Below, piece by piece: positions 6,947 to 54,089 of a DNA stretch of 64,000 nt. A program made the translations under genes and the position numbers. The notes beneath the pieces are model-generated. The model had not been told where the DNA came from, did no database searches, and was given only the letters and a program-made list of their open reading frames with translations. Position 1 is the stretch's first letter. Every line of letters begins with the position of its first letter. Source of the DNA: Fragilariopsis cylindrus CCMP1102 (lineage: Eukaryota; Bacillariophyta; Bacillariophyceae; Bacillariales; Bacillariaceae); NCBI GenBank assembly GCA_900095095.1, contig FMBT01000181.1:1-64000 (forward strand), in the 5' to 3' direction.

Positions 6947-7459
6947 GATTATATCTTGTATATCCTTTTGTCTTTTTAGCAAGTACGGTAGTGTTCTTAG
7001 AACCGTTTGAATCTTGCTTTGGTTGCTTGTTGGATGTACTAACAGTACTCGTACTTCGTAGGTTTGAAGGTGTCTCCGTACTAACTCTTGACTGACTCTA
7101 TTAACGAGTAACAAGAAACGACATGAGAAAATATGCTTATCGAGTAGTGAATGCCAGCGTGATTTCTCCGCGTGGAACTGCGAGAGGCGGTCTTCTCTAC
7201 TGTAATACCCCTGATAATAATATCATTTTTGATGGGATTCGATTTGATTCATGAAGTGTACTCTGGGTACAAGTCGTACTTCTTGATGATACTACTGTCT
7301 ACATGTACCCTAATCAATTTCGCGAAATGATTTTATTATGTTTTACTTTATTTATTACATTAAGAACTAAGAACTTACATTATACTACATAACACATTCA
7401 TTCACTAACTAGATTGGTCGTCCAAGATATATCTATTGTATAGCGGCAATTGATAATTG
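6947..7459. promoter_or_regulatory. Divergent promoter region SPC2 / mitochondrial carrier
   Basis: 513 bp between two outward-facing start codons; the promoters of both genes must lie here. No individual element is recognised. Confidence 0.45.
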
Positions 7460-8747
7460 ATGGCACCAACAGAAAAGGCGAATGGAGAGGACGAATCGTC
7501 GTCGATTGACGGCGATCGCAACAATCAACAACACACGAGAAGAATAACTCATACTTTCAGACGACGCAAAACGACTACAATACGAGGACGTCGGTTGACT
7601 GAATACGATGACAATGTCAAGAATATAACAATAGTGGGGGAAGAATGGGAACCAACACATCAGGAGGAGCAGCAGCACCGTCGAGAGGCCGTGAGTTCTA
7701 TGTCCTTTTTTTGCGGAATAACAGCAGGAGTTTTTCAGGCTGGTATTTTCAATCCCTTCGACAGAGCACTCTATCTATCTATAACAAATGAGGTACCCTT
7801 TTTACGGCATGAAAACTTTCGCAATCCTTATACTGGGTTCCTTCAATCTGTCGGTCACAGAGCTTTATCGTCTGGTCTTTACTATCCGTTGGAAAATTTC
7901 TTTTGTTCGTTCCTTGTTCCATCTCATTCTCATCCTAATGAATGTGAAGAAATTATGAGACAAAATCCAGGGATGATTCATCTGCATCCCGCCTTGGCAA
8001 ATTTCTTAGCGGGAACATTTGCCGGTACAACGAATGCATTGGTACGTAACTTGTAACCTGTACAAGTGAAATGAAAAGAAAAATCAATGTTCATCTCTGA
8101 TCAATACCGGTGACAATCCCTCTTACCCTCTTCTCTTTATATATCAAATTATGTACTATAAAAAATAAAAATAAATGCAGATGGTCAATCCAGTAACCGC
8201 AATAAAATATAAAAGCTGGGGTCGAGATTTTAATCGGGGGATGGTAACAGAAGCGATGGAAATGTTTCGTAAGGGAGGCTTGCGACCTTTTACAAATGGT
8301 TTGTATCCCACAGTCTTGCGAGATTTATGTTTTGGTGGTACATACACATTTTTACGATTAGAACTTCAGTATTTGTTCCAATTACGTCCCGATCAACAAT
8401 GGGCGGCTAATATGACAGCTGCCGCGCTGGCGACTGTTGTTAGCGCACCATTCAATCTAGTAAGGAATGTTCAATACGCTACACGGTCAAGAGAAAAGGC
8501 AGATACAATTTCTGTGATATTACACGATTTCATGAGGGATGCTCGGGGTCAACAAACTACTTGGCAACGTATGAGATATATCCAAAATCGACTACGGGTC
8601 GGTTGGGGAACAGTAAGAGTGGCAATCGGGATGGCATTTGGTCATTTGGTATACGACAGTCTCATGGGAATGTATGAAGATTACGATGATGAGCGGGAGA
8701 TAAAATTGAAGCAGCACAATCAGCACCATCAGCACCAGCACCAGTAA
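7460..8747 (+). CDS. Mitochondrial carrier family (SLC25) protein, two exons
   Basis: Inner mitochondrial membrane solute carrier. Exons 7460-8041 and 8181-8747 join in phase 0 across a GT-AG intron to give 382 residues; the start at 7460 is the first ATG. Three carrier repeats can be followed by their signatures: NPFDRAL (PxDxxL), NPVTAIKYK (PxTxxK) and APFNLVRNV (PxNxxR). Repeats two and three depart from the classical Px[DE]xx[KR], which is seen in atypical carriers. The N-terminal 75 residues are charged and disordered, and the C-terminus is a Gln/His tail. The substrate cannot be deduced. Confidence 0.8.
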
Positions 8748-9463
8748 CCGACTGCATTATTTCGAGTAGAATCGTCAGAAAGAAGAGAGAATCGGTAGCA
8801 GCAGCATGCAGCGAGTTTTCGTGGTCGGTCTCTCTTCTCCTCTACTACCTATTAGTACAATATATGCGGGGGGCATCTACTATTTACTTATGTAGATCAG
8901 CAGATTATACAGGCTGATGATTCGATTCCTCTATTTGTGTTTGGAACACTCAATATTGATTGTCATTATCTTTCTCTGCTTCATGATATTGCAATATCCT
9001 AAATCAAACCCTTCTTGCTTGCTTGCTTGTTTGTTTGACATCTTCTAAATGCATCGATTTTTAATTACCAATTGATCGAAGGTCCTTGAACATTGTTTCT
9101 TCGCCGACGACTACCGTACTACAAAAATAATACTAACGTTGAAGATGGAATGTTTGAGATTGAGAAAGAAGATAATTGTTATGGTGACATAAAAGACGAG
9201 TTCTTCTACACAGTCAAGTGAGTTGATTGCTAGTTAACTTTTAACTAGTAGATTCATAGAGGTCACTTTTGTTACACGCACAAATCAATAGAGTTAGATC
9301 TACCCATTTCTCTCATGTGAAAAAAAATCATTGTAACAATCTAATACTTAATGACATGCTATAAATGTATATCTGTATAGTGTTATTAAATTAATTTAAA
9401 GTTCGTTAATTCGTCCTCCTTCTTCTACTTCAAGTCAATGTCATAACATGTATATATTAATAT
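8748..9463. other. Intergenic, convergent 3' ends
   Basis: 716 bp between the carrier stop and the NSA2 stop. Contains a short tandem GCTT/TTGC stretch near 9013-9035 but no gene, RNA or mobile element that I can support. Confidence 0.5.
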
Positions 9464-10246
9464 TTACACCAGTAGGACAGAATTGACACATCCATCCAAT
9501 TCGGGATTGTTGGTAACTTGTGCCATCTTACCCCAAGCGACTTTACCTGATGTTGTTACCAAACCTAACTCGCTAACGTTAACTTCGATTATTGTACCTT
9601 TCGTCATGACACCAAGATTGGTATAAATTTGGGATGATGGATTCTTTCTAACACCCAATATATCCAATTGGAATGTAGTTTTTAATTCAGGATGTGTCAC
9701 ATTGGCACGTTTCATTCGTAATCCAGATGGACGGATGAAACGTTCATACTTAGGATTTTTTCGTGTAAAACTTTCACCACAAAATGTAACCTTTGTGACA
9801 ACTCGTTTCCAGGCTTTCTTTCCACGTTTACCACTTTTCATGACCTTAAACATTTCATCGTCAGCAACTGGTTTGACCTTTGGGATAGGTACCTCCCATT
9901 TACCAGCCTTTTCTTTACGTTTTTGTTTCACGGTATTACTTAAAACTTTGGCACGACTTACACCCTCCCGATCCAACAAGTACGCAGGAACAGCACCTTC
10001 CGCAACAGCCTCGTCGTTCGCATGAGTATTGGTGCGTTCGTTATGCATAGCAATTGTCTTGCGCATAGTCGCCTTTTCCTTAAATCGTCGTTTTTGATAA
10101 ATCTTTGCACGTATACCATGAACCTTTTGTGAAAATTCAGAACGTTTATGTACTAACCGTGCTTCCTTTTTTCTAGTCCTTTCTTCGTGATCCATCCGTA
10201 CTCCATGGAGTTTCCGGTGGCGTTCCATATGCTCATGTTGAGGCAT
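9464..10246 (-). CDS. NSA2: NSA2 ribosome biogenesis protein
   Basis: Nuclear factor for maturation of the pre-60S ribosomal subunit (27S pre-rRNA processing). It is 260 residues in one exon, the exact usual length of the family. The N-terminus [15 protein letters not shown], the basic coiled-coil region (about 20-75), the AYLLDREG block and the C-terminal eS8-like beta domain ending with [10 protein letters not shown] are all strongly conserved. The start is unambiguous. Confidence 0.96.
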
Positions 10247-23722: not shown

Positions 23723-26700
23723 TCAGTTGTTCCACTCATAGAAACCTTTGTACTTGGTCTCACCTAGGATCGATGCCCAAAATACTTGGGAAAATGATTC
23801 ATAAGAATCAAAAGTAGGAAGGTAAAGTCTTCTAGAACATGTATTAGCGCGAGGCAGGCAGCACTCATTCATGGGCAAGCCAATAGGGACGATTTCTAAT
23901 TTTCCAGGCGTCACAATTGGTAGACTGGTCACGAATGACAGGAAATGTCTTCGCTTCTTTGGACTCGCTTCTAGCAATGCCTTAACGACAAATTTGACAG
24001 TCGAAGAGGAGGGATCAAACCGCCGGTTTGCCAATGTTTCCGCATTCCCGCCGATTGCAGCAACTGCCACTAAGGCTTCTGTGTGTGTGGTGCCTTTGCC
24101 ACCTAGTTGAAATAGGTCTCTGATATCCTCTTCGGTCCACCCATCAACGTTGTCTCCCATTCCACAAACGTCATGTTGGAGTTCCTCAGAAGTAAATAAG
24201 CGAAGATAGTCAATAGGGAAAAAGTCATCGATTCCGCTTTTAAAAGCTGATGCTTGTTCAATTACTCCTTCATGCAACATAAAATATTTTGTTTTGGTAA
24301 TCCATTCGCGAATATTATGAATGGTAACACTTCTGTCATACCCATTTGGACACAATGAGTGCGCTTCAATACCTTGTGTCGGGTCTAAAGGATCAACAAA
24401 GGTCCTATCCTGAAAGTAATCATCGAAAGAGCAATCATAATTCTTTCCAAGAGCTATTCGAGCAAAATTCTTATCCGTAGCTATTTGGCGATACTCGCGT
24501 TCTTTTTCTACTTCACTGAGCTGTGGATCCTCTTGAAAATCAATGCGGTCAAGTGCGCGACAAATGTGCATTTCCGTGGCATAAACCTCGCCACCAATAA
24601 ATCCTGGTCGAGGAAGATCCTCGCTGGAGAGGATACATCTTCCGCGTTTTGTGTCACCTACCTCGTCTACAAAGCCCATACCTGAGTCAAAGTGTGGCTC
24701 TCCTGAGTTTTGAACTAGCTTTAAGAAAGAAGCACTCAGCGGTAGAGGAAACATGAAACCATCTCTCATTGCCGCAGCAAATAATCGCCCCATGAATCTA
24801 AAGTACCTCAAGACAGGGGAAAGTTGAGAATGTAGCGGCGATATCGGTCGAGGATAAATACCAAAGATACTGGATGGTGCTGCCCGTGGAGTTGGAATGA
24901 TGACTTGACCACTTGCATCAATATCAGGTATCCAAAGCGGTAACTTAAGTGGTTCGTCGGAGTGCTTAAAAGTAATAGAGGGCGAATTTTTCTGTAGATT
25001 GTTTAGAGATGCACAACTTAAAGAACAACTCACACCTGCCACTAAATCGCAAGACAACAGACTTTCTGCGACATCAGCATAAAAACCACGTGTTACACCA
25101 GCTTCATCTCCAGTAGAGGCATCAAAACCAGATTCTCCATCAAATCGTATCTCTAACCTTCTTCGATTCAAACGTGGATCACTGCAAAATTGCTTCATGA
25201 TGGACATAGCATCGGATAAAAGTGACTTTCTGTGGATAGCCGCTTTTGCTACTTGCAGGGTCATCTCTTCCCATCCTTCAGCACGGAAAGAAGCCCGCAC
25301 GCGGGTAGCAAGTGCATCTTCCATCCCGTACAATTCATCTGCCTGTAATTGAAGGGCGGTCGGATCCTCTACGTCACCAGAAAAAGCATCTGCCATTAGT
25401 TCAACAGCTCTAGCTCGGAGCGAATTCATTCGTTGTCGTAAACGGCCGACATTCACCTTAGCATCTTGTTGACGAAGCGTGCTTCGAGAAACGCCAAAAG
25501 CGACTCGATCGAGAAGCAGTTTCCGAGAAGCATAACTAAAGCTATAGGTGTAAATAAGGCGGAAATACATAATAATGTGAGGGAATTTGATACAAAAAAA
25601 GATTCAATAGGGATATAGGATTCAATCGGGAAACAGGATTTCTACTTACATATTTGGAGCAAAAGCAGGAACAGCTAAGCACCATTCCGGCGCGATCCCT
25701 CCCACAACGAAAAGGGGATCTTCGGATTGTTTGGTAAGTTTCTGCGAGAGAGTTTGGTTCACAAAGATTGATCCACTGGTAGACGTATCATACTGTTTGT
25801 CCTTCGGCAATCTAGAGTTTACTCTAGCCAACAATTCAATTACTTCAATGCATTGAATACAAATTTCATCAAGGCCATCACATCTAGATCCAAGTTCATC
25901 GCAATCGGAGTAATTTGTAGTATGTGACAACTTACGGGATCGACTGCACGTAGCATTCGACCACAAATATTGTTTTTGTGTTGGGTCGTCTTTTACTTTC
26001 AGTGCCATATTCATACCATCGTTAACTATCATTGGAATGTTCGAATTAGTTCCTTCAGTTTTTTTTGGAGTAGGTACTTGATTAAACCATTTTTCTTCGC
26101 CCTTTGATGGTTGAAGGATGACGGAATAGAATATTTGGTGAGCTTCGTCGTCCCGGAAAAAATCACATTCTTCATCTTGGTAGAGTTGGAAAAGCAATGA
26201 AATTAAAGTGGTATCTGATGCAGAAACGTTGACTGGAGAAAGTATCTGAGGAGAACTGAATCGTACTTCTAAAGATGGAGGAAACTCAAGTGAATTGTCT
26301 TCGACATAAATATCAATATTGCGACCATCCAAAGAAATCTTGAACTTGATACTATCAAAACTCGGTGGACCTTGATTATCCGATGTTGCACTTACACCGA
26401 CAGGACACATGGATTCAATAGATGCCAATGCAGACCATGTGCGTTTAAGTACTCGTTTCCCTGCCTTTCTTTGTCCTCTTCCGCTAGAATCAGGGCGTTC
26501 TCCTTCTATGGTAGCATGTCGACGAGAAATGAAGGGAAATGTCCTACTAAGTTGCTCCCGGGCTTCAATACTTCGCCTCACAGCAGGATTCGATCGAGTA
26601 GATCTGGCTTCCTTATCATCATTCCTTTTTCCATCGCACACATTATTTTCTGACACCCCAGTGTTGACCACACCTTCGTCGTTTACCAGATCGTAGGTTT

Positions 26701-29700
26701 TATTTTTATCTGAGGTGTCTACAGCCACCACGGTGTAAGTAGTCCATGAAGATGATTTGATATCACTTTCCACAATTGTCCCAATCACATTCGACAAATC
26801 GTCTCTCGACGAATTATTCAACAATCCTTCGTTGTTGTGCCCTACCATACCTTCTGCAAGCAATTGTTCCATGTCAAACGCTGACTTTTTTTCCGAATTT
26901 TTTTCCCGAAAGATAATCACGTATTTCTTGACAGAAAGAATTTCCTTTGTAGAATCGGCCTCGAATTCCAAAAGAGGAGCTTTCTCGTATTTGAAGTTTA
27001 TGCAGTCTTCGCAGTTTGATTTCTCAACGAAACCAGAACTATATCTAACCATGTGCCATCCAGCTTTCTCATCGAATGACACAATCTTTGCGATACGCCA
27101 TAAATGTTGATCGCCTTCAGCATATGACAGGGTGCGCACTAAAATAATCGCTGAGTCCTCAACTAACTTCCTGCAGAAATTGACGTATTCGCTGAGGGTA
27201 GTCGAAGCAGTTTTGAGAATCTGACGCGAGAGATCGTCAACGGAAACCAGTGGCTCCACAAGAATGGTCACGTCTCGATCCCTTTGTTGTTGTGTGAGTC
27301 GTATCTTAATTGGTTTCTTCAGCGATCGCAGAGAAGATACACCACCCTCTTTTTGAGCAACTTTGATTGTACTCAGGTCTTCGTGGAGTGAAAGAACCTT
27401 TTGCAAACGTCGAAGAAGCTCAGGGAGTTGTTTGGCTCGGACCTTCTCGTCTTTCTGTCCTATCTTTATTTCGTCGTGTTCTTCGTATCCATCGTCACTT
27501 CCATCGTAGTCACCATCACCATCTTGCATGTCCTCGTTGTCATGATCCTCATCTTGTGAGCACATTGGGCTATTATTATTATGGTCAGGAGATTTATCAT
27601 CATCGAGAGATTTCAATATTTCTTTGGCAAATTCAAATCGTTCCTCTTCATTTGTTTCCATTCTTTCTTCGAAGTCGCCAGATACCATGCCTGCAACACG
27701 AGGTTTTTTGGTCCGACGACCAATGTTCGTGCGTTCACTACTGATTTTTTTGCCCATCAACGTCGAGTGAAGAGCCGGCAAGATTATATTTAAGAATTGA
27801 TGCATTGTGACTCTTCCTTTATTTTTAAGCATAAACGCTAATCCTTGAATTGAATCCAGGTCTCGTTGCAATAGTCTGATGGACAAGGTATTAACATCTG
27901 AAGCATTGTCCATACTCTTCAGACCCTCTACCATTCGGGTCCCCCAAATCTTGTCTTCCTCTTTCGTATCATCATCTGCTGGGATCGTACTTTTGCCCAA
28001 GAGTTCTTGGCACTGCGATGCCAATTCTCTAACAAACTTCCATTTCACAATTCCTCCCTCTACCTTGTTACAGCAATGTTCACATTTATCCCAATCACAT
28101 GAGCGACAACCGAACATTATAGCGCCGCATTCTACACCTTTACCACATAGATCACAACGGAAAGAAGAATGTTTCGTAACATGAAGAGTCGCCTTATGTT
28201 TCTTGGGGCAGAGAATAACTTCTGACGCTGAAAAGATGTCTTCTTCGTTTATACTCTCGGCGAGGCGAATTTTCGATACTCGAGAGGATATTTCGGTTAG
28301 TTGATTTAATGCTAGTGCATCATGAGAACACACAAAATCAGCGAATCCGTATCTTTCCATTTCTAGGCTTTGATTCAATAACGGAAATCTCCGCAGTAAT
28401 GTCAAAAGGAGGGTTAGACCCACACAGCCATCAGTTATTCCTTTACTGCTGAGACAATCTTCTATAACAAGGAGCAGATTTGTAAGTTCAGAATCTTCGG
28501 CTAGGGATCGACCCAGAATAAATACCGGAAGAGCTTGCATAAGACCGCATGGCTCTGAGGTGCCTCTTTCTGATATCGTAGAGTATATGCTTTCTTCGTT
28601 CACATCTGAAGAAGTCGATGTAGAAGAAACAATCTTATGTCTCTTGCGTAAAGCGCAAAGTTCAACATTCCCTACGAGAGCGCATGCAATGGCGCGTCCG
28701 CATGTGTCATTTCCCTGCTGTTGCTGTCGACGTTTTAGACATATCTGCACCAATTTCCTAGAAAACGAAACTAGGAATGACTCAGCTTCTTTTCGCAGTC
28801 TTTTATGTTGACTATCCTGGCGTTTCCTTGCGTCGTGAACTATTGCAGCTATAGATGAAGAGCAATTCTCCAAGTCAATCATGCCATCGGAATAAACTTG
28901 ATGCATCAGAAGTGTTGATAAGATATCTGGTAGATCGAGATCCGCAGCAAGTTGGATTTCAATTTCCTTGACAGGCGCTCCACAACGGATAAGTTCTTTG
29001 ATGACTGACAAAGAACATCCAAGTGTTATAGCTAGCTGTAGTAGAGGCATCCCGTCATCATCTGTGGCAGACTTTAGAATCGAAGATTCTCTCGTATTTT
29101 GCTTCCGAGGAACTTTCTTCGCAAAATAATCAAGCATAGACTTTAGCCATGGCAATGAATTCCCAAGAACACCCATAGATGCAATGTTTTTTATCGAAGA
29201 AAGAGGAATTGTGCATCTTTCGTTGGTACCATTAGGGGGGTAATAATTATTCCTACCTCTCAAGAGCGTATCCAGTACCGTTTCCTCTAGTGAACTTTTC
29301 ACAGATGATGGGCGCTCCGATGAAGTAGCAGATTCAATAGGACGAGAATTCTCAAGACGACCATCATCTTGACGTTCACCAGGTCCGAAAACGTTAACAT
29401 CACCATCACTGGGTGGGGCAAAGAAGAGAGCTGCGGCTGCATCAGCGCTCATTTCAAGTGACGGCATCGCGTGCATCTCCCTACCTAAGATATCTCCCAA
29501 AGAATCACCCTCGGATCGACGAGCTCGAGACATCAGGGATAGAAGCATCCTGCGTCGTTGCATTAAAGACGATGAACGTCCACTGGACTCCTCAATAGAT
29601 GAATCGGCGTTCCCCCCAGATCTTACAGTATCTTGCTGATCATCGCTTGCGTTAGAAGGAATATTTATCGAGTGCAAGTCTTGGTATTTACTTGATTGTT

Positions 29701-32700
29701 GTTGGTCCTCATCTTCGCACTCATAGATCAGACTGCTAGCAAGACATTCGTTGGGAAAGGATCTCTCGGCAATTATTAACGCAAGTTTTCCCAACGCGGA
29801 GATAGCGAGGGCAAAACTTTCGTCAATCTCAGATAGCTGGATATTTTGCATCACACAATTTAAAGCTTCTAATACAAAATTGGGTAATCCAGCTTCAAAA
29901 AGCGTTATGAGTGAAGTCGGCGTTTTATCGCATTCTTTGATCACCCTTTCAATGGCAGATGCATCCAAGTACTTCATCATTTGAAAGTCCGACATCACAC
30001 AATCACTAATAGGATTATCGGAACTTGAATTTTGCGTATCATCGACGTCCATTTCGTTGCTGTCATCTTCCCCGTCTTGTACTGTTGACCTCGAAGAACC
30101 TGTTCCTCTACGTGGTTTTTGAGAAGCGCTAAGACCATGAAATGCGGAAGTATGGACTAGACGTGAGGCAGAAACTTTTCGGCATTCTAATGCAAAAGGC
30201 TGTTCCTTGAACGACGAGCCTGTTTGGACAGACGTACTTTCTGCGAACGTTTTACTAACAAATTCAACTGCCACTGAACCGGATACACGCACTCGTGCGG
30301 ACAGAGGACCAGAAATCGAACTCTCTGGTACGATTTTTCCGACAGCTTCATCCACTCTATACGTGGATGATTTTTCATGATTGTCTGCATTTTTGAGTTT
30401 CTTCGGAGCAACCAAATCTCCTATTTTCCACGATGACGCTGATACTTGCTTTCCAACGAGAAGTGTTAGCGTTTTTTCATCGTATCCGTGTAACCGCAGT
30501 ATCCCTTTCATAAACCAAATTCCAGGTGAATCCGTCAGGCCAGAATTTTCCCGGACAAGCGCTTGCGGCTGATACCACCATCGGCGTGAATTGTATACTA
30601 CACGAATTGAATGCCTTGTGTAATGGTTGAGATCATCGTAGTAGAATGAAGAAAATGTTAGAGATTATATGGCAAACTAGATAACGAAGTAAACTTGCGC
30701 GACACGTAACATACCTTAATCCTTGCGCACCCTGTAATTCGATAATAGTCCCTCGATTGCCAGGAAGAAGCGGACCGCTGACGGCATCTCCAAACCTCTC
30801 ATAACTTAAAACAAGCTCAACTTTTTCTCCAATCTGAAGGAAAGAAAAATGGAAAAATGCGTTAGCAGATCTTAAAAATATAATTGAAAACATTTTGTAG
30901 ATTTTTTTTGTACATTTTAGACCTTACCTGAAAGTCTGAACGAGCATCAACGTTGTGACATGATTGTAATGGGTAGACTCTCTTTTCGTCGTCGGTATTA
31001 ATGCGCTCAAGCAATTGATAGAAGTCTTCAAACTTAATCGTCTTGATGTCACCCGCAACTGTAAATTCACGAAATAAATCCTTCAGGCTTGAAAGTTTGA
31101 TACCGCATCGATACCACAATCTTGACGCTTCAGTCTGAGTTAAGCAAGTATGACCTGCTGTTAAATATCGAGAGAATATTTCCTGCAAAACAGATGTTAG
31201 CTTCGGTGTGAAAGATCCATTTTGAACCAACACAGAGTAGTCAATTTTCAGTTGCTTCCGTCGCATAGCCTCCTTTTCGAGCTGAACTTGTTTCCAGCTA
31301 GTTGCAAATGAAGTTAGCAATGGCAATGGTTCTCCGGACATTCCAGTGATTGAAACAGTGGAGCCAGCATTGTACGGAACAACTATGGGGTATAACTGTC
31401 CACTTCTCGGTATATTTGTCACCAAAGTTCCAAGTAACTTCGGTTCCCCCTTTTCATCTCTCCAAAATGTTAATGTGCGACTCTCTAAGTCAACAACACA
31501 AGTGATAACGTCTCTAGAACCGAAAAGAACACCATCATCGTTCCTAGAAGCTTCATCTTCTCTCAATTCTACAGCATATGTAGATCTTCTACGACTACGG
31601 ATACCTTCCCTGGCGGTACTACTTTGACTTCTCGTTCCTTCGTATTTATTCCCACCATCCTCGATTCCAAAGAAGAAGGGAGACTGCTGAAGAGCATTTT
31701 TTTCGCTGAAAGAAGAGAAGGACGTGTTCGTGACTCCAATGAGGTAGCATCCACCCATATTCTCTCCGTTTTCTTTGGAAGGATGAGCAAATGCGACTTT
31801 GAATCCAAAAACACGTCTTGGTTTACGCTCCTGACCGGATGCTCCCGATAGAACACTATTATTTGATGTCGATGACGATGACATCGATGATGACAGTGAA
31901 AACGATGCAAACGGCGCACTTCTCGGAAAGGCTTCCAGTGCTCTCAGCGCACGTCCCTCTCCAGATCCAAGTGGTAAGTAGGCGACATTTTGATTCGCTC
32001 CATCCCCAACTTCTATCCCATTACCTGTTCTCATTCGACCACCAATTTGAGATGGATTCATCCATTTTGGCTGGTACACAGAATCATTATCCCGCGCAGC
32101 TCGCAATAGCTCATCGGGCTCGAGTCTCTGAACCGGTTCTCTAGCAGCTACGGCAAAAGATCTAGCCGCATCGACAATCGATGGAGGACCTCCTCCTGCT
32201 CCTCGAATTGCAGCAACAGCTGCCCTACTACGAGCACTTACGCTATTACTACTACTACTTCCGACACCGGCAACTTCCATAGCCATAGCGGCAATCTCGT
32301 CGTCTTCATCGGCTGCTGCTGCTGCAGCAGCAGCGGCATTCATATCCACATCACCATCCATGACGCTTTCAAAAAATTCGTGGTAATATCCATCCATCAT
32401 CATACCGCTGCCAAAGGGAAGATGATGTTCATTGTCATTATTACTATTGTTGCTGTTGTTGTTATTGTTGCTATTCAAAATATTTCGTCGGGCTGCCACA
32501 GAACTCCTTGCAAACAAACCCGAAGCTCCCGAAGCCCTGGCGGCATATCCAGCTCTCCTCAATATTGATGATCCTGATAATTATTTTTGATGATGAGCAA
32601 TAGTTGACGAGAAAGATTGGTAGAAGCAAAATATTGTGTTAGAGATACGATACTTCTCAAACATTGGGAATTAGGATGACAAGGATGATTTATTCTACAA

Positions 32701-43195: not shown

Positions 43196-46100
43196 TCATT
43201 CCTTCTTTGCGCTATCTTTGGTTGTTGACTTTGTCTGCTTTTCGTTATTCGAAGGAGGCTTGGTGACTGAAGTCGGCGGAGGAGGGATGTAGGCTTGTAC
43301 TGTAGCAGCTGCCACAGGTGGGGGTGGGTTTCGATGCCGCTGCTGCTGCTGCTGCTGCTGCTGATGGTGTGGAGGTACAGTAGTATTCACAGGTCTTGGT
43401 GCCACAGGTCGGACAACGTTAGGTGGCACAGGTGAAAATACAACAGGTGCTCCTCGAACAGAAGATGTTGGTTGAGAAGAAGGGGGTGGATATCGATGCT
43501 GATATGCAGTGTTATCTGTTCCATGCCGTCGTGAAGAATTATTACTAGTCGTTGAGATATCTCCCCGTTGCAAACTACCGGTTCTCACGACGGTGGCGGC
43601 AGCGGCGGCACCACTTCTTTGCTTGTCAGCTAAATCCAGGATTTGAAGAGGCCACATTTCAGTTCTTCCACTCGCCCATAGGGCTGTAACCGATGATTGA
43701 ACAGACTGCATGTGAGACGGATGGGATGGAACAGGATGTCCAGCTTGATTCTCACCTGCAACAACTCCGGGTATAGACATAGGAATGACCTGTCGCCTTG
43801 ATCTGGAAATGGACATAGCAGAGAATGACCGCCTCTTGGGTTTGGGTCGATCTTGAGGTGGAAGCCTATCGGTCATATCTACGTCTGGAGTAGCTCCTGC
43901 CGACTTGTTTTTACTGTCACAAACAACATTACTTGATTTATGGTCGCCTGTTGCATCATCTTGCTTCTTGTCAACAGTATTACTAATTGAAGATGCGATT
44001 CCATTTGGTACGTCATTTACAATATCCATATCATTTCTCGTTCCATCTTCTTCATTCTGATTATCTGTATATGTTTCTCTCGTCTGGGTAGGATTGATGA
44101 AGTTGGAAGATTTAGATAGAATGGACACTCTAGCAGCCAAGCGGACTTCGACTTTTCCCTCCTTGTTCGATTCTTTGTTGGTTTCGATTTTGTCGCACCT
44201 CAACGATGCGTTTTCACGAAACAGTCTCTCTGACTTTCGAACTTCGTTTGCAAGAGAGGGTTCATTTTGAGCGAGAGCTTGCCATCGATCACGACATTGA
44301 CGAGCAGACTTTGGAATGGAGGGAACTAAGCGCTCTATACCTGTAAGACTTTCATTGGTAACTACGTGTTCGAAACCGCTCATTGCGCTTGCAACAAGTA
44401 GCCAATTCATACCAAACTTTTTCGCAGAGTCTTGGAGAATTTTGTCATCTCTTAAATTCCACGAGGATAGAATTTTCTGTTCTCTAGTCGGTTGCATGAC
44501 CTTAACACCCATAGGCAATGAAACACCTACACGAAAACGTGGAGTGGATATACCAGTCATTCCAGATGGTGATGCCAGGTATCCGACTTCAAAAGCGCCA
44601 AAGTCAACACAGCGTGGTGAGACCAACGACCTTCGCAGTTCTTGTCTTTGCATATTTGACTGAAATATTGCAGTATCGCCTGACATTGAACCATCCTTCA
44701 ATTCTTCTATGATACTGGCCCAACCTTGACAAGGACTATTCCGGTCTTTATCAATCGAATATGATTCTTCTACCAGTTGTATCGGTAAACCAGGACCAGA
44801 GTCGTGCGTTAGTGTAGATTTCCACATCAATCTCTCAAGCCGTTCTGCCACCCTCCTTTCTACACGCATCGCTGCTACTCTATATGGAATTGAATCAAAG
44901 AGTGTCAAACCAGTAATTCTCTGTCTTGCATAGTATGAAGCAAGTAATTTGTGCCGATGATCGCCCTTCATCTGTCTTGAGTTTGCCGGAAGAGGCGACC
45001 GAGGTACAATTTGATTGAGCTGGGCACCCACACTACCAGGAAGTCTCGTAAAGGCAGTATGTGGCATTTGGGAACTCAGTTGACTTCCTCTCTTTCTCGT
45101 TTTCTTGCCAGATTCGTCAGCACTCGGATCCTTGGAAGACTTATTTCCAATCGACAAAGGAACGATGCCGGATGCGCCTTGAGCAAATCTGTAGGATGTT
45201 TGTGATTCCAAGTAACTCATAGGTCGCTTCTTGACAAACAGAAGTACGGACTGCATTCCTTCGTCCATATTTTCCAAGGCTGAAGTACCAGTTTCTTCTG
45301 CATCGCAAGGGAAATTGAAAGACGTAAAATCGTATCTGTTGTCACAAAATATGGCTGAATTAGTCGCTTTTGTATCATGGACCGAAAAAGAAATTGCATC
45401 AATGGGTTTAGGAATGGCCCCAGCTCCTAACAAACCAAAATCTTCTTCGATCATTATGAAGCCATTCGATTCGTTTTCGTCAACTTTGCTTTCAATTTCA
45501 GAATTGGGTCCAACTGCAACAGTCTTCGTTATTGCATTGTCTATCACCACCTTTTCCTTAGAGACGACTGGAGTAGATCCATTGGTTTGTGCCGACGACT
45601 CAGGTGCAATTGCACCTACAGAAGATAGAGCATTAACATGTCCGTTCATCTCTGATGGAGGGGATTGTGTCTTCAGTCGTTTGAGATCAGGTTTGACATC
45701 GGCATGAACCTCAGTTAATCCTCGATCCTTTCTCTTCAGAAGTTGATCATTTTCTACGTTATCATTTACTTTAGCGGCTTCCTGAGGATTTGAATCCACT
45801 TTGGATGACGAGGTAGCTTGGTGACCAATTCTTGCCCTCTTGGAGCATTCCTCGAGCAGCGGGAATAGTGGAGGAAAGAATACGAGTGGTTCACAACCTT
45901 GATTCCCATCTCTCACATTAATTCCATCCCAACTGCTACTAAATATCTTTGCGTAAGCGTTGTATCGTCGTTTACTATTGATTTGGAAAAGTTCCTGACA
46001 AGGCTCATAAAAAAGCAAAGAAGAAGGATTTCCATCAATAGCTGGATCAAGAGGTACTTCGTCTACATCAGCAGAATCATTCGTGAACGACCCCATCGGT

Positions 46101-49100
46101 TGCAATGACTGGCTCGAGGAATTCACTCCAAAGTTGTTGGAAACTGAATGAGATTCCATGAGCTTCTCCAAGAAGAGTCGGGATGCAATCACGGGCAAAT
46201 CTTGACGACTCATGGATCCTGCTGGCAATGTACTTCCGTACGAAAGTAACGTCGGAGTCATCGAAACTTTTTCCAGTGCTGATAACTGAATTGAAACCAA
46301 TGAAGATGTTTGTTCTTTCTGCAAGAAATTACGCAAAAATTGAAGTTCTGTTGTAATTTCTTCTTCGTTGATAGCAGGTTTAATTGTATAGCTATTGCGT
46401 CTTGGTAAAAATGTTGCTGCTTCACCTGATCCGAAAAATGAAGGCATGTTCCTCGATGACGCGAGAACATCTGATAGTAAATCTCCTCGCTTTTTCAAGA
46501 TATCTACTGCAGGAAAAGAAAAGTAAGACGGTGCATCTCTTTCGATCAAAAGCCTGTAAATTTTCAAGGCTTCGTCTTGTGAACTAGGTATAGTCAAGAA
46601 TCCTTCACTATCCAATGGCCAAGCAAAGGCTCCTTTGTGATTGTTACAATCACTGAATAATTTTGATTCCACCGAATCAGCACAGACAAGTCTGATTAAT
46701 TTATCTTCCTTGCCAACAAGTTCGTTTTTCGCACGCCACCGTCTAATCAGAGAATCGACGATGTACCCGTCTCTCCCAGACCAATCACTATCCAATGTAA
46801 TGATCATATCGGCGCCTTCAACCCCAAGACCACAATTCCGCCCAAAAAACACCGCAGGGGCCGCAACAATGATATTTGTCTTTCTAGAATTCTTTTTATC
46901 ACAAAATCTTGACAAGGCACTTTGCGATTCTGCCCATGCAGTAACTTCGTGTCGTTTTTGATGATGATCGAGATTTGAGCACAGTGATACATCAAGTTTG
47001 GCATTCTTTCCGCTTATCGCATATGACGAGTCTCTACGAAACAATTCATTTTGTATCCCCAGCGAATTTAAAAGCGTAGAGACAAGGTGCTGTATATCAG
47101 GAAGAGCTGCGAAAATTGCTACCTTCTTGGCAGATTTTTTTGTTTTGTTGTCTGTTTTGACGTCTCCATTTAGCCCTAACAACTTTCGGGTGCTTTCATC
47201 GCAATTAATACTATATCCACCCTTTTCGACGAGGATCAAAACAAGCTCCTTAAGTTTTGCAGAGCTCCTAAGAATAGAATATACACTATCAAAGTCAGGC
47301 TGAGACGGATTATTTCCTGCATTCAGACAGGATGAGTGTCCGTTGTGCGATGCAGAGGTTGAATGGATTTCAAGTCCCTTCGCATGGAAACAATGCTGCC
47401 TCAATCTAAAAAGAGCGTTGGACGCAACAGAAATAGAACGACGATGGCTCGAACTGGATTTTTTGGGATCATCCAACAAGGTCAAAGATAATGCCCCTCT
47501 TACTGCATAACAGCACTTTTCGTATTCTTCACGTTGAGCACTGCTCATGGTACATGGTCGCAAATCCCACTTGAAATCCGAAGATGAAACAATTTGGTTT
47601 TCAACACGAAAACACATTGGATCAATGACATCACTAAGCACGTTTCTTATGCGTGTTGCCTTATCGGTAGTACCGTTCTTTCCTCTTTTTCGAGCCCATG
47701 AAATGACTTGTCGTTGAATTGAATGAGATCCTGAATCGAAAATTTCTGGACCAATTATGCATGCTGCTCTCTTCGCAAGGATCCTAATTTGTTCTTTCTG
47801 TCCTAGACCACATTTCGACAAAGAAAGGGGGTCTGCATCGCAATAGTCGACGAAAAGGCAGCGGGTGTCTCTTTTTTTACTGACAGCTATGATGTCGCCC
47901 CACCAATTATTCGACAGTAATTCCGGTGGAAAATGTGGGTCAACTCCAGATGAAGACGAAGAAGTACCAAGTGATTCTAGAAGACCGTGGAAGTGGCGAA
48001 GATCTATAATAACTGAATAAAGGGAAACACTCATTGCATTCAGAATACTTTTCATTCGATTGACTGTGGAATATTCGCAAACAATCACATCCGCAGGTTT
48101 TATTTCTCCGACATCGTTGCTGCCATTAGGATTACTAATACCGCCAACCAAACCAAACGTAAGAACGCGGATATTTGAAAATAGATTCAGCTCGTGTTTC
48201 CAGCGAATCTAAAAGACAGATGTGAGAAGTTATCTTATTACAAGGAGAAACAATAGGAAAATTAAAGATAGAAAGAAACGAAATTTTATCATTGAATACT
48301 TACCATGCTCCTTGGCGGACAGATCAATAATTGAGGTCCTTTCGTTCGTTGTTTCCAAATTATAGTAGCTGTAGCAAAGGTTTTTCCAGATATTGTCGGA
48401 CCTAAAATCATAGCACTTGTGCACGGTTTCCCCGACCACACTTTGTCAACGAAGTCAATCATTTCTTTCTGTTTGGGGGCAAGTTTAATATTACCAGACT
48501 TAAGTGATTTTGTCGTTGACTCTCTCGTCGACGACTTGTATCTTGATCTGCATACGTTGTGAATATTATCTATGTAATCGTTAATACTATCAAAGTTTGA
48601 GTCCTTCAATCTGCTATCATCTTTATTGTTGTTATCCACGTCTATCATATCAACGGTATTTGCCGTGCTTGTCGTATCTTCGTCGTTTTGTTTGATCGGC
48701 GACAATTTGTCGTTTGGATGATTCTGCGTTGCCAAATATTTGGATGTTGATATTGCTGTCAATTTTTCAAGGATATCTGATCGAGTCGAGACAAATTGTT
48801 TCAATGCTGCTTGGTGATATTTATCAGAAACTTCAAAAGATCCACCTTGCTTTATTGCAACATCCAATTCTGAAATCATACATGATAATATTTGACTATT
48901 CGACTTGGCAATATTCTCATCCTCAGTTGCTGGAGGCGTATATCGACGACGGGTATCTTTTTTATTCAAATGTTTTGTTTCTCTACTACTATTTGGATTG
49001 TCCAAAGAACTGGCAGAGAGCGCTATATTATCGATATGGAGATCTCGAGAAGCATCGTGGCTGATAACTTCGGCGGACCTTTTTCGACGGTCTGATGATA

Positions 49101-50850
49101 TTCCCTGCGCAGGAATCTTTGATGATATAAGACGCGCAGTAGATAACTTCCATTTCCTTTCTTCCATAAAGTCAGACGCTAACCATGACATTTCTTGCAG
49201 TAACGTGTCCCAATGAGTCTTCCGTCTTTGCGGTAGTTGTGCCGGGGATGGAATTTCAAGTTCAGTAGTGACATTTATTTTCTTCTTCATTAACGGTTTA
49301 CTTGTAACGCCACCAGCAGTAGTGACTGCACGCCGAGCATGAGCTTCATCATCAAAATTCGACTTCATCCCACCTCCAGACATTGTCATTATCGATGGAT
49401 CATTACTGTGTTGTTGTCTTTCCATTAGATTCCGCAATTTCATTTGGACCTGATCTCGTTTCTCACGAAGCAATATTGCCTCAGGAAAATGTACTTTTGA
49501 TGATGCTGATGCTTGTGCCAAGGATGAACGAGGGTTGAAATTATTTGTCGTCATCATCGTGGGCCCTGCACTCTTATTTGTATTTTGATCGGTTCTAGCG
49601 ATTATACTTGATGTAGGGGCGAGTTGTTGGGATCCACCTGATTGTCCTGACAATTTGTTGGACGTTTTATTATTTTTACTATTCGGGGGACGTCCTCGTG
49701 GTTGCGGTCGCGGTACTTCAGACTGCTTCGTAGATTGTATTGGATATGGAGTTACTTTATTCGATTTTGGATTGCTATTATTCGCTTGTACGACTGTTTT
49801 TGTATTTGTTGTTGTTGTGGTAGAGGTACCAATCGGATTGACTGGAAGACGTGTAGCTTTTTGTGATATATTCGATTTAGAGGAAGGGGAAACCTTTATA
49901 GCTGATTTCGTACTACTCGTACATTTATCACTTACAGATACAGAAGTTTGTGCTGCTACATCATTACTATCTACTGCATTAGCATTAGCATTAGTTGTTA
50001 GGTTTGATCCCGGTACAAGTGACGAAAGCGCGGCATTCATCCGTTTTCCAATATTTGATCCTCGTCTTAATGATAGAGACGTTCTCTTTTCATTTGTACC
50101 ACCTTTACCGTCTCCATCACCTCTATTATTTTTCCTAGCCGCTTGATTCGCCCGTTTCGTCATGTTCCGAAATGCAGCAATTTCTTCGTCGTCTGTAAGC
50201 TCATTATTACTATTATTCCCCTGGCTTTTCGACGAGAATTCCCCAATACGTTTTTCTGCTGATGATCTACAAGATTTAACTCTTTCCAATAACATAGATC
50301 TATGCAAGATCATATCTTGCATTCTTTTCTCACGACGATGATGGTTGTCGTCGTCGTCATCGTCGTAGCTCGCAGTATGTAGCGCATGCCTTCTCGTTGT
50401 CGACGTTCCATCTTCACTCGAACTGCAACTTGATGAAGCATCTAAAGAATTCGTATTAGATTTTTTATCTGTCATATTTTCATTAGATGAAGAAGATGAG
50501 GAGTTGTCGACCTTCTCCTTCTCATTATTTTTGTCGTTGTTGATTGGTTCCTGCACCTTTTTCACTCCAACCTGTTCGTTCGTATTTTTCGTCCCTCCTT
50601 TCTCTCTCGCTACCGTTGGGAGCTGAGACGATGACGAGGCTTCTGTTTCATCTGATGCTGATGGTTCTATTGCGATGTTATTAGTAATTGGTGTTGATCG
50701 AGAGACGTTGTCAGCTGTACTTGTACTACTTGTAATGGCACTATCTTGCGCGGAATCGGGTGCCACTGCGCGCTGCTGCCGGTTCGAAGCAGTCGAATTA
50801 ATACCAGCCTTGGAACCTCTCTTCCGCTTATTATTTTTCGTGGACGACAT
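43196..50850 (-). CDS. HSA-SNF2-SANT chromatin protein (EP400/Eaf1-like) with degenerate ATPase, two exons
   Basis: Exons 50850-48304 and 48208-43196 join in phase 0 to 2519 residues, all frames intact. Order: disordered charged N-terminus with an AT-hook-like RPRGRPPNSK-type motif near 390; HSA domain (about 545-585, HWDTLLQEMSWLASDFMEER); SNF2-like region (about 805-1390); SANT/Myb domain (about 2092-2165, ILQDSAKKFGMNWLLVASAM, then SARQCRDRWQALAQ); Gln/Pro-rich tail. This is the layout of EP400/Domino/PIE1, scaffold of NuA4/SWR1. The motor is degraded: motif I is GPTISGKT, motif II is IDLRHFHG instead of DEAH, the TGTPxQN motif is not found, motif V keeps GLGVEGADMIITLDSDWS, and motif VI lacks QxxxRxxR. 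ATP hydrolysis is therefore unlikely, while the scaffold role (as in yeast Eaf1, which has HSA and SANT only) could persist. Confidence 0.8.
43337..43362. repeat. (GCT)n coding microsatellite
   Basis: GCTGCT run on the plus strand coding poly-Gln on the minus strand near the C-terminus of the HSA-SNF2-SANT protein. Confidence 0.9.
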
Positions 50851-51518: not shown

Positions 51519-54089
51519 TTATTTATTTTTTGTGACGGAGGAGGATGAGAATGCTGCGCCCCGTGTAACATCTCCCTTCTGAATTGCAATTTCAGTGTGT
51601 AAAAATTTAGCGGCTTCCGAAGACGCACGGACTTTCGTAGAACTTCGATCCATCATTTCTTTCTCGTATAATTCTAATGCATCTCCCAAAGATCGACCTT
51701 CACGACAATGAACTCGATATAGAATACGGGCCAGTGACAGGGCATCTATCAGTGCTTGATTAGCACCCTGTCCCTTAAAGGGCGACATTGGATGTGCAGC
51801 ATCACCCAGAAGAGTTGTCGGCAGAAAAGAAAAGGAAGAAGAAGTCGAGGCAGAATCAGTCCCGGTAGTAGTAGTGAGTAGTCGCGGTATTATTTCTCTT
51901 CTTCGTGATGTCGAAAGAATCTCTGCTGTGAGAAGATCACGATCATAAACAGGATATCCCGAAACCAATTCGATGGGTGTTGCGTTTAGGATTTCTGGGA
52001 TGGGGACATGCCATGATTGACACCTCCTCAAAGCTTCGTCTTTAAGAGCCTTCGGTCCACGTCGAGACAAGTCAAGGGCGATTTCTTCATCGGGAATAGG
52101 AAAACTAAGTTGCCACATATATTCGTTATTTTTCTTTGAGTAAGGCATAAGATAAATTCGAGTTGTTCCATCTGCAGTCTGAAAGACAGTTTCTCCATCT
52201 AAAAGTGCAGATAACTGTATCTGTTTCTGCTTTTGCTGTTGTCGCGTCAAATTTGTCGATTCTTGCTTGAATAGATCTCCAAGGGAACATATACCAAGAA
52301 TAACAATGCAGTGCAAGTAACGAAGAGGTGTGATTTGTTTCACGATTCCTTTTGCTTTTGTTGCAATGGGTTCAGTAAATAATGGAACGCCATCGTTATC
52401 GTTATCACTATCAGTATCATCATAATTGCTATCATCTTTTCCGTTATGATTGTCCTCATCACCTACTCGTAAAAATTTCTCTCGCACGGATGAAAATATC
52501 CCATCACATCCTACAACTAGATCAGCTTGTGAGGTCACGACGCCTTGATCGTTTCCATTCTCATCTATGACTTGAAAAGATAATCCCACTTTTGGCTGTA
52601 GAAGATAGGGCGCCGAGGTTGATGATTGTTGTTTCGTTTCAGATTCTATCTTACTAAGGTTGGTATTGTCTGTCGTACACATGTTATTCGAACTATCTCC
52701 AAATACCGGTTGGATATCCACTAGTTTGTGACCCCACGAAATATCAGGACTATCGTCATTATTATCTGCACTCGCCTCCTTCAACGCCTCATATAATACA
52801 TAACGTAGAGTCTGTCTTGGTACATGCAAATTTTGTCGTCGCTTTTTGTTCTTACCGCGACTAGATTGCGGTTTGATCCTGTTCTTCGTTTCGTTCTTCT
52901 CGTTTTTCGAAATGTATGTCTCGTTGTTGTTCTTATTATTGGCTTCACCGGTCCATTTTCGAAGACCCCATTCCCCACAGATCGAACCGTCTGGTGTATG
53001 CACTACGTGCTTGGTTGATGTGACCGCATGCTGTTGCAGTATTTTACCGCTGCCGCTGCTTCTGCTATTGTTATTGCCATCATTGTCGTCGACGCTGTCG
53101 CTATCCTCATCATTTTCGACGATGCCAAGGGCTCGTAATGCCCTTCTGGCTTGTTGGAGTGTTAACCCGTACTTTTGAATTTTACGATAGATGAAGGGAG
53201 AAAAGAGAATTCGTTAGTTCTGGTCACTTGCATGTAAAAGATCTAAACGAAAATATCTAAACGTTTCGTTTGTACCAAAAAATAAATAAAAAAACTTACA
53301 CCTTGCGACCGTTGATCGAAACGAGAGTCTTTCTCAAAAATATGAAAGGGAATCTGCCGATGTCGTAAGGCTACTGCTAAGGCCATGCCACCAATACCAC
53401 CACCTATGATAGCAACGAATGGAGGATGATTTCGAATTGGATGAGTGATGCGTCGGTGTTTGTTACGGAAGATATTGTTCCGTTTTTGCTCGATGGTATC
53501 AAGAGACCAGTTTGATCACAAATTTACACGAGTCCCATCGTCTTGGTAGCATTGAAAAGGGTCGTGTTTTCACTTCATTGTCTTTGTTTAATAAATTATT
53601 TGTTGTTCTCGTTGTTGTCGTCGTCGTCGTCGTCGATGGTAATCCCGATGGTGATCGTTTGACGCGCTTGTGATCGTTATCATTCTGCCGTTGTTGTTCC
53701 TCCTCCTCCTTTTGTAGTTCAATAAGTCGTTGGTGTCGAAGCCTTGATTTTTTCGATGGAGCCTTAGAAATTACACCCTCACCATAGCACTTGGGGCACA
53801 AGATCGGGACAGCGGAGGACAGCATTTGAGTGGGAGAAATTTCAGCAGTGGCGGAACCGGTATCGAGATTTACATCGGCATCGGTCCCAAATTCGTCGTT
53901 GTTGACGCCATCCTTCTGTATGGGAATTATAGAAGTAGTAGGGATTCCGACGTGTGGATACCCGATGAATCTGATGACGAACGTTGAGCGCAGTACATAA
54001 ATCTTGATTGATATGTAAAAGCACAAGTAAAGATGCAGTTCGAAACATGACATGTGATTACAATAATTGCGCAAGAAAAATATTCTCAA
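51519..54089 (-). CDS. FAD-dependent monooxygenase with N-terminal DnaJ-like CXXC pair
   Basis: Aromatic-ring hydroxylase-type flavoprotein. Exons end/start at 53300 and 53171 (GT-AG, joining RSQG with YGLTLQQARRALRALG). The FAD fold is clear: IIGGGIGGMALAVALRHR (GxGxxG), VVGCDGIFSSVR, and TTLLGDAAHPMSPFKGQGAN (the DG/GD motifs). Upstream, LCPKCYGEG and SCKFCDQTGLL form a CXXC pair like half a DnaJ zinc finger, separated by a basic/Glu-rich helix. Two places there (AAA near 53520-53522 and TTTTT near 53483-53487) each need one more base to join the CXXC region with the FAD domain. The true N-terminus is uncertain: two different frames upstream of 53940 could supply it. Substrate unknown; the fold is shared by kynurenine 3-monooxygenase and zeaxanthin epoxidase. 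Confidence 0.75.

What the first reader, a model, noticed from the sequence alone, without database searches (positions are those of the whole stretch)
43196..50850. HSA-SNF2-SANT scaffold with a dead SNF2 motor: possible EP400/Eaf1 intermediate
The protein has the full order HSA, SNF2 ATPase, SANT known from EP400, Domino and plant PIE1, yet the ATPase lost motif II (IDLRHFHG for DEAH), motif III and the arginine motif VI, while keeping GKT, MSSAQREEYE and GLGVEGADMIITLDSDWS. Frames are intact over 2519 codons, so the loss is under selection for something else. Yeast Eaf1 has HSA and SANT without any ATPase. This gene may show the step in which NuA4's platform lost its motor while still carrying the fold.
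Basis: partly seen in the sequence, partly recalled or inferred. Interest (0 to 1): 0.78.

Follow-up and report, generated by a model that had tools for sequence, protein, structure and literature searches.

The report
Dead motor kept inside chromatin scaffold
A microbial eukaryote has a large chromatin protein that looks like the platform of a histone-acetylating machine but still carries the worn-out remains of a DNA-moving motor, which could help show how such platforms gained or lost their motors.

Summary
On the minus strand two exons (50850-48304, 48208-43196), split by a 95-nt GTAAGT...TTTTAG intron, encode 2519 aa with an HSA helix (540-579), a decayed two-lobe SNF2 region (about 790-1380) and a C-terminal SANT/Myb-like domain (2099-2161). 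SNF2 descent is real: Pfam SNF2-rel_dom scores 27.0 bits (cut-off 24.9), and a SNF2 profile scores 34.9 bits against at most 3.0 for 5000 shuffles. Decay is heavy: a SWR1-like gene from a fetched contig scores 306 bits. P-loop GKT, motif Ia and motif V survive; DEAH is DLRH (catalytic Glu lost), motif III is unrecognisable, motif VI broken. The long inter-lobe insert of SWR1/SRCAP/EP400 is also missing. HSA matches EP400, then SRCAP, then Eaf1. Best reading: an Eaf1/EP400-type NuA4 platform whose motor is a pseudo-ATPase kept as a structural or binding module. The 'evolutionary intermediate' claim is only partly supported: no orthologue, genome or lineage could be tested, the SANT did not match EP400 or Eaf1 in the PDB search, the SNF2 remnant cannot be placed in a subfamily, and loss here may parallel, not precede, yeast Eaf1.

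The parts
48304..50850 (-). Exon 1 (residues 1-849): low-complexity N-terminus, HSA, linker, start of SNF2 lobe 1 up to half of motif Ia
48209..48303 (-). 95-nt spliceosomal-type intron, GTAAGT...TTTTAG, phase 0, inside motif Ia
43196..48208 (-). Exon 2 (residues 850-2519 and stop): rest of SNF2 remnant, linker, SANT, Pro/Gln-rich tail
49114..49233 (-). HSA helix, residues 540-579
   Evidence: Pfam PF07529 E 3.1e-10; PDB EP400 4e-9, SRCAP 5e-7, Eaf1 3e-6
48379..48402 (-). Motif I / P-loop GPTISGKT, residues 817-824 (kept)
47993..48004 (-). Motif II, DLRH for DEAH, residues 918-921 (catalytic Glu replaced by Leu)
47828..47863 (-). Motif III position, RCLFVDYCDADP, residues 965-976 (TGT lost)
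47381..47704 (-). Second SNF2 stretch, residues 1018-1125 (Pfam profile 187-288), including MSSAQREEYE and LRQHCFHA
   Evidence: Pfam fragment scan 13.7 bits, E 0.034 on its own; SNF2 profile, middle stretch 10.0 bits
46778..46831 (-). Motif V region GLGVEGADMIITLDSDWS, residues 1309-1326 (kept)
46736..46759 (-). Motif VI region VDSLIRRW, residues 1333-1340 (DRxHRIGQ not kept)
44273..44461 (-). SANT/Myb-like domain, residues 2099-2161; 63 residues on 43 profile positions, so it holds an insertion of about 20
   Evidence: Pfam Myb_DNA-bind_6 E 8e-4, below gathering cut-off; PDB Myb proteins

Best explanation
An Eaf1/EP400-type platform subunit of a NuA4-like histone acetyltransferase complex. 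The HSA helix would carry the actin/Arp4/Swc4 module and the SANT domain would dock on Tra1/TRRAP (inferred from the yeast and human structures). Between them lies a SNF2 motor that can no longer work as an ATP-driven remodeller: the Walker B glutamate, motif III and most of motif VI are gone, and so is the inter-lobe insert that relatives use for RUVBL. Shown here: the domain order, SNF2 descent and loss of catalytic motifs. Inferred: NuA4 membership, and that the remnant serves as a folded spacer or DNA/nucleosome-binding module, possibly still binding nucleotide through its intact P-loop.
For: HSA E 3.1e-10; as a short query it matched only EP400, SRCAP and Eaf1 among the 9 PDB sequences up to E 10. 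SNF2 descent: Pfam above cut-off on the spliced region, two stretches in the right order; own SNF2 profile 34.9 bits in three stretches in the right order, reversed region -0.3, best of 5000 shuffles 3.0. Decay: two SWR1-like proteins of fetched contigs, with complete motifs, score 306.3 and 296.7 bits on the same Pfam model. Missing insert: at most about 36 residues between the middle block and lobe 2 against 239 in SWR1, 520 in EP400 and 1128 in SRCAP. Precedents, from passages: Drosophila DOM-A supports H4K12 acetylation without a functional ATPase, and an ATPase domain put between HSA and SANT of yeast Eaf1 did not affect its function (PMC7239659); HDA2/HDA3 are proposed to use a helicase-lobe fold as a DNA-binding scaffold (PMC7062823).
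Against: No NuA4 partner gene, orthologue or genome could be examined. The SANT match is below Pfam's cut-off, the SANT query found no EP400 or Eaf1 chain among 15 PDB sequences, and BLASTP with EP400's SANT finds a 13-residue piece (E 5e-4 for that one comparison). HSA also matches SRCAP, which is not a NuA4 platform. The middle SNF2 block alone did not beat shuffles (1.8 bits against a best of 9.9). In pairwise comparison SNF2 (13.9 bits), a bacterial SNF2 (12.4), SWR1 (12.1) and SRCAP (10.5) composites are level and EP400 lobe 1 plus middle scores -1.3. Structure prediction gave no independent support.
Confidence: 0.58

Rival explanations
1. A fast-evolving but still active EP400/SWR1-type remodeller that tolerates odd motifs. 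It would hydrolyse ATP with a non-standard motif II.
For: P-loop GKT, motif Ia and motif V survive. Human EP400 itself departs from the consensus: DEMQ in motif II and LIDSPLHN in motif III.
Against: EP400 keeps the Glu of motif II; here it is Leu. TGTP and DRxHRIGQ are not recognisable, and the long inter-lobe insert of this class is missing. The Pfam score is about a tenth of that of a SWR1-like protein.
Confidence: 0.08
2. The SNF2 remnant comes from another SNF2 subfamily (SWI/SNF or ISWI type, which have short inter-lobe linkers), so this is a different scaffold and not an EP400/Eaf1 relative.
For: The only PDB matches of the remnant up to E 10 were four SNF2/SMARCA-like chains (14.2, 14.1, 13.0, 12.3 bits; one of them is named a WD40 protein). 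Inter-lobe spacing of the SNF2 chain 6iy2 and of MtISWI is 24 and 21 residues, close to the 36 or fewer here. The SANT found no EP400 or Eaf1 chain.
Against: All these scores are insignificant (E 0.11 to 0.4), and composites of SWR1 and SRCAP score nearly as well. HSA matched EP400, SRCAP and Eaf1 but no SNF2, BRG1 or STH1 chain. A C-terminal SANT without a bromodomain is not the SWI/SNF ATPase layout (recalled). The long insert may simply have been lost with the motor.
Confidence: 0.19
3. A pseudo-SNF2 scaffold of a lineage-specific complex, working like yeast HDA2/HDA3 as a DNA-binding anchor, with no NuA4 tie.
For: HDA2/3 complex structures rank 5 and 7 among matches of the alignment-guided model (3hgq, E 0.003-0.004). 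Published precedent (PMC7062823, passages).
Against: HSA plus SANT is the signature of NuA4/SWR1-type platforms (PMC4358907). The model was guided by SNF2 rows, so its matches are biased.
Confidence: 0.12
4. Pseudogene or assembly artefact.
For: Strong sequence decay of the motor.
Against: 2519 open codons, one canonical intron, 0 stops in the SNF2 frame against 14-48 in the other five, and synonymous codon usage favouring the coding frame over both shifted frames in 7 of 8 stretches, the short HSA stretch being the exception.
Confidence: 0.03

Closest known systems
EP400 / Drosophila DOM-A / plant PIE1 (HSA-ATPase-SANT platforms)
   Same: Same domain order; best HSA match is EP400; C-terminal SANT-like domain; Gln-rich tail as described for DOM-A (PMC7239659)
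   Different: SNF2 catalytic motifs lost; no long inter-lobe insert; SNF2 region barely detectable by Pfam; SANT not recognised as EP400-like by phmmer
Eaf1 / plant EAF1 (HSA-SANT platforms of NuA4)
   Same: HSA similarity (E 3e-6 to Eaf1 chain 7zvw, 0.01-0.06 to three other Eaf1 chains), SANT on the C-terminal side, no working ATPase
   Different: Eaf1 is described as lacking the ATPase domain altogether (PMC4358907); here a two-lobe SNF2 remnant is still readable
SWR1 / SRCAP
   Same: HSA plus SNF2 order; SRCAP HSA E 5e-7
   Different: Intact motifs and a long insert; Swr1 is described with HSA and ATPase, no SANT (PMC6089883)
HDA2/HDA3 of the yeast Hda1 complex
   Same: Helicase-lobe fold in a noncatalytic subunit of a histone-modifying complex, proposed as DNA-binding scaffold (PMC7062823)
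   Different: Resembles only the C-terminal lobes; no HSA or SANT (recalled); deacetylase complex

Membership tests
SNF2 family (descent) | Recognisable SNF2 two-lobe sequence with motifs in order | tested here: met
   PF00176 27.0 bits above cut-off on the spliced region, stretches in order; 34.9-bit profile match against a best shuffle of 3.0. Pfam Helicase_C did not match lobe 2
Active SNF2 ATPase | DExx motif II, motif III, DRxHRxGQ motif VI | tested here: not met
   DLRH, DYCDADP and SLIRRWRA at these positions; no activity assay possible
EP400/PIE1-type platform | HSA-SNF2-SANT order in one protein | tested here: met
   the SANT match is below the Pfam cut-off
EP400/SWR1/INO80 class of motors | Long insert between the lobes | tested here: not met
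   At most about 36 residues against 239 (SWR1), 272 (INO80 7zi4), 520 (EP400) and 1128 (SRCAP)
EP400/SWR1 subfamily of SNF2 | SNF2 lobes nearest to this subfamily | tested here: inconclusive
   Best matches mixed and insignificant; no tree attempted at this divergence
Eaf1/EP400-type NuA4 platform | HSA of the Eaf1/EP400 kind | tested here: met
   SRCAP also matches, so it does not separate NuA4 from SRCAP-type platforms
Eaf1/EP400-type NuA4 platform | SANT domain of the kind that docks on Tra1/TRRAP | tested here: inconclusive
   A Myb/SANT-like domain is present, but no EP400 or Eaf1 chain matched it and BLASTP with EP400's SANT finds 13 residues; docking cannot be tested
Eaf1/EP400-type NuA4 platform | Physical membership in a complex with Tra1, Epl1 and a MYST acetyltransferase | not testable with these tools
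   No genome, no proteomics
Eaf1/EP400 evolutionary intermediate | Relatives showing stepwise decay, and a separate active SWR1 in the same genome | not testable with these tools
   No genome held; no relatives in the viral or prokaryote collections; no eukaryote collection is offered

The most novel reading that the evidence does not exclude
In this lineage the NuA4 platform is a former EP400-type remodeller whose motor died but whose fold was kept as a pseudo-ATPase. It would be a living intermediate, implying that Eaf1-type platforms (HSA-SANT) can arise by motor decay from an HSA-SNF2-SANT ancestor and that EP400 need not be a late fusion of Eaf1 and Swr1.
Probability: 0.28. Interest if true: 0.78.

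Novelty: new variant of a known kind. Interest (0 to 1): 0.55.

Why it matters
Published accounts treat EP400 as a merger of Eaf1 and Swr1 (passages of PMC11995519 and PMC6089883) and list Eaf1, Swr1 and p400 as three architectures. A platform that still carries a dead motor between HSA and SANT would be a fourth state, and it makes the direction of change testable: orthologues would show whether the motor decays in steps. It also asks what a dead SNF2 fold is kept for in an acetyltransferase platform.

Tried and rejected
Structure prediction: the single-sequence model of exon 2 residues 850-1420 failed (pLDDT 35, pTM 0.22) and Foldseek showed no SNF2 chain in the 50 rows printed of 253. A second model (residues 850-1401) guided by 7 SNF2 rows from fetched loci reached pLDDT 50, pTM 0.50; it matched Mot1 (E 4e-4) and ISWI (8e-4) with TM-scores of 0.28 and 0.25 by query length, EP400 at rank 37 and SWR1 at rank 40. 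Because its rows were chosen as SNF2 proteins, this is not independent evidence.

Search for relatives: exon 2, exon 1 and an HSA alignment in viral contigs and the HSA alignment in genome contigs gave none. Scans with SNF2 alignments, two of viral contigs and one of genome contigs, gave 16 loci: phage-like and bacterial SNF2 genes and two SWR1-like ones (L008, L013), used as comparison. Seven of the 16 loci went into the profile; L001-L007, L015 and L016 were left out as more distant.

Shuffle controls: 3000 and 5000 shuffles of residues 760-1420 were made; HMMER listed scores for 1485, 1402 and 1233 of 3000 and for 1933 of 5000, the rest having no reportable score. The lobe 1 and lobe 2 block profiles beat every listed shuffle (9.6 against 6.4; 13.5 against 10.9); the middle block did not (1.8 against 9.9). 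Scanned as fragments, the two Pfam SNF2 stretches scored 18.2 and 13.7 bits, each below the cut-off, and lobe 2 matched no Pfam family. NCBIfam gave nothing; PHROGs gave a helicase at E 5e-4.

Rejected: pseudogene and active remodeller (see rivals). ICA69 (E 0.0043, below cut-off) was taken as a chance match in an Asp/Ser/Asn-rich stretch. PMC9236257 (passages) held nothing on the point.

Full report
The gene. Two long minus-strand ORFs, 48289-50850 and 43196-48151, are exons of one gene. The 95-nt stretch between them (48303-48209) begins GTAAGT and ends TTTTAG; removing it gives 2519 codons. An in-frame stop lies just upstream of the ATG. The intron splits motif Ia of the SNF2 domain (CPPRSM|IRWKHEL), which then reads like SWR1's VVPTSVLLNWEMEF. 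This fixes HSA and SNF2 in one protein. The organism is a eukaryote (spliceosomal-type intron; neighbours such as SPC25, S8e, HECT and XPA_C), but no call identifies it as a diatom and no whole genome is held.

The domains. HSA, residues 540-579, matches Pfam at E 3.1e-10. As a short query it matched EP400 (best 4e-9, four sequences), SRCAP (5e-7) and Eaf1 (3e-6 for chain 7zvw, 0.01-0.06 for three others); these are all 9 PDB sequences up to E 10. With the whole exon 1 as query, 4 EP400 sequences and one Eaf1 chain were listed. The C-terminal SANT/Myb-like domain, residues 2099-2161, reaches E 8e-4 but stays below Pfam's cut-off. Of its 15 PDB matches up to E 10, 10 are Myb or Myb-like proteins and none is EP400 or Eaf1; BLASTP with EP400's SANT finds a 13-residue piece.

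The SNF2 remnant. Pfam found no SNF2 match in either exon alone (E up to 1) but scored 27.0 bits, above the 24.9 cut-off, on the spliced region. Scanned as fragments, two stretches appear in the right order: residues 822-918 on profile 29-132 (18.2 bits) and 1018-1125 on profile 187-288 (13.7 bits), each below the cut-off on its own. A profile built from 7 fetched SNF2 proteins plus block composites of SWR1, SRCAP and EP400 scored 34.9 bits in three stretches in the right order (16.8, 10.0 and 4.3 bits), against -0.3 for the reversed region and at most 3.0 for 5000 shuffles. Block profiles from PDB letters gave 9.6 bits for lobe 1 and 13.5 for lobe 2, above every one of 3000 shuffles, but 1.8 for the middle block, which is not significant alone. 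Two SWR1-like proteins found in public contigs (69-75% identical to the yeast SWR1 lobe 2) score 306.3 and 296.7 bits on the same Pfam model, which measures the decay.

Motifs. Kept: a glutamine at the Q-motif position (LAPKQ), Walker A GPTISGKT, motif Ia, the DV...Y strand, the LR..C.H helix, and motif V GLGVEGADMIITLDSDWS. Lost: motif II Glu (DLRH), motif III TGTP, most of motif VI. The register of motif VI is uncertain: phmmer keeps the second arginine, MAFFT keeps neither. Human EP400 is itself unusual (DEMQ, LIDSPLHN) but keeps the catalytic Glu. Motif names and the catalytic role of the Glu are recalled.

The missing insert. Between the middle block and lobe 2 this protein has at most about 36 residues (1129 to 1166), plus some 30 extra residues inside the start of lobe 2. 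In chain coordinates the same gap is 239 in SWR1, 272 in the INO80 chain 7zi4, 520 in EP400 and 1128 in SRCAP, and 24 and 21 in the SNF2 chain 6iy2 and MtISWI; block ends differ by a few residues. In EP400 the insertion domain works with the RUVBL-type AAA-ATPase ring (passages of PMC11995519 and PMC9643008).

Is it coding? In residues 781-1420 the coding frame has no stop while the other five have 14-48. Synonymous codon usage favours the coding frame over both shifted frames in 7 of 8 stretches of the gene; the short HSA stretch is the exception (0.007 against 0.015). The effect is small because the codon bias of the reference genes is weak. No dN/dS was possible without orthologues.

Where does it belong? 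HSA plus a C-terminal SANT points to the Eaf1/EP400/PIE1 group: PMC4358907 (sections 5 and 6 read; passages) and PMC6089883 (section 16 read; passages) describe three architectures, Eaf1 (HSA-SANT), Swr1 (HSA-ATPase) and p400 (all three), and the latter predicts Eaf1 and Swr1 homologues in brown and green algae. The SNF2 lobes do not settle the subfamily: the four PDB matches were SNF2/SMARCA-like at E 0.11-0.4, and in pairwise scoring SNF2 pieces (13.9 bits), a bacterial SNF2 (12.4), SWR1 (12.1) and SRCAP (10.5) are level while EP400 lobe 1 plus middle block scores -1.3.

How it may work. In yeast NuA4, Eaf1's HSA helix carries Arp4/Act1 and its SANT binds Tra1 (PMC9643008, passages); in human TIP60, EP400's SANT and HD domains bind TRRAP (PMC11995519, passages). 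In Drosophila, DOM-A supports H4K12 acetylation without a functional ATPase, and a Domino ATPase domain put between HSA and SANT of yeast Eaf1 did not affect its function (PMC7239659, passages). An acetyltransferase platform can thus carry a motor it does not need. Once a separate SWR1 does the exchange, the motor is free to decay; what is kept may be a spacer or a DNA-binding surface, as proposed for HDA2/HDA3 (PMC7062823, passages). All of this is inference for the present gene.

Structure. Neither model is independent support: the single-sequence model failed, and the alignment-guided one matches SNF2 chains with TM-scores of 0.25-0.28 after being fed SNF2 rows.

Prior reports. Ten searches of the paper library listed no title or abstract about a degenerate ATPase inside an Eaf1/EP400-type platform; only open-licence papers are held and most were seen as listing only. 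PMC3145265 (passages) lists MYST acetyltransferase homologues in two diatoms and a brown alga.

Verdict. Calling it a pseudo-ATPase platform of the Eaf1/EP400 kind is the likeliest reading; calling it the evolutionary intermediate is a good hypothesis that needs orthologues.

Noticed in passing
L008:3264-5705: A contig titled as a Euryarchaeota MAG (PBDU01000012.1) carries a SWR1-like gene (75% identical to the SWR1 lobe 2 query) beside ORFs that look by eye like glutathione reductase and cyclin: probable eukaryotic contamination.
   Followed up: partly
L013:2249-5569 and 7362-10146: An IMG/VR contig holds a SWR1-like gene (HSA and complete SNF2) next to ORFs that look by eye like phage capsid and scaffold genes: probable chimeric assembly.
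   Followed up: partly
window 25646-30511 (-): A 1621-aa ORF with no Pfam match at E 0.001.
   Followed up: no
window 51519-53003 (-): FAD-binding monooxygenase-like ORF with Asn/Asp/Ser-rich stretches; its start (GTG) is uncertain.
   Followed up: no
window 43196-43600 (-): Pro/Gln-rich C-terminal tail of the protein, reminiscent of the Gln-rich region after SANT described for Drosophila DOM-A.
   Followed up: no
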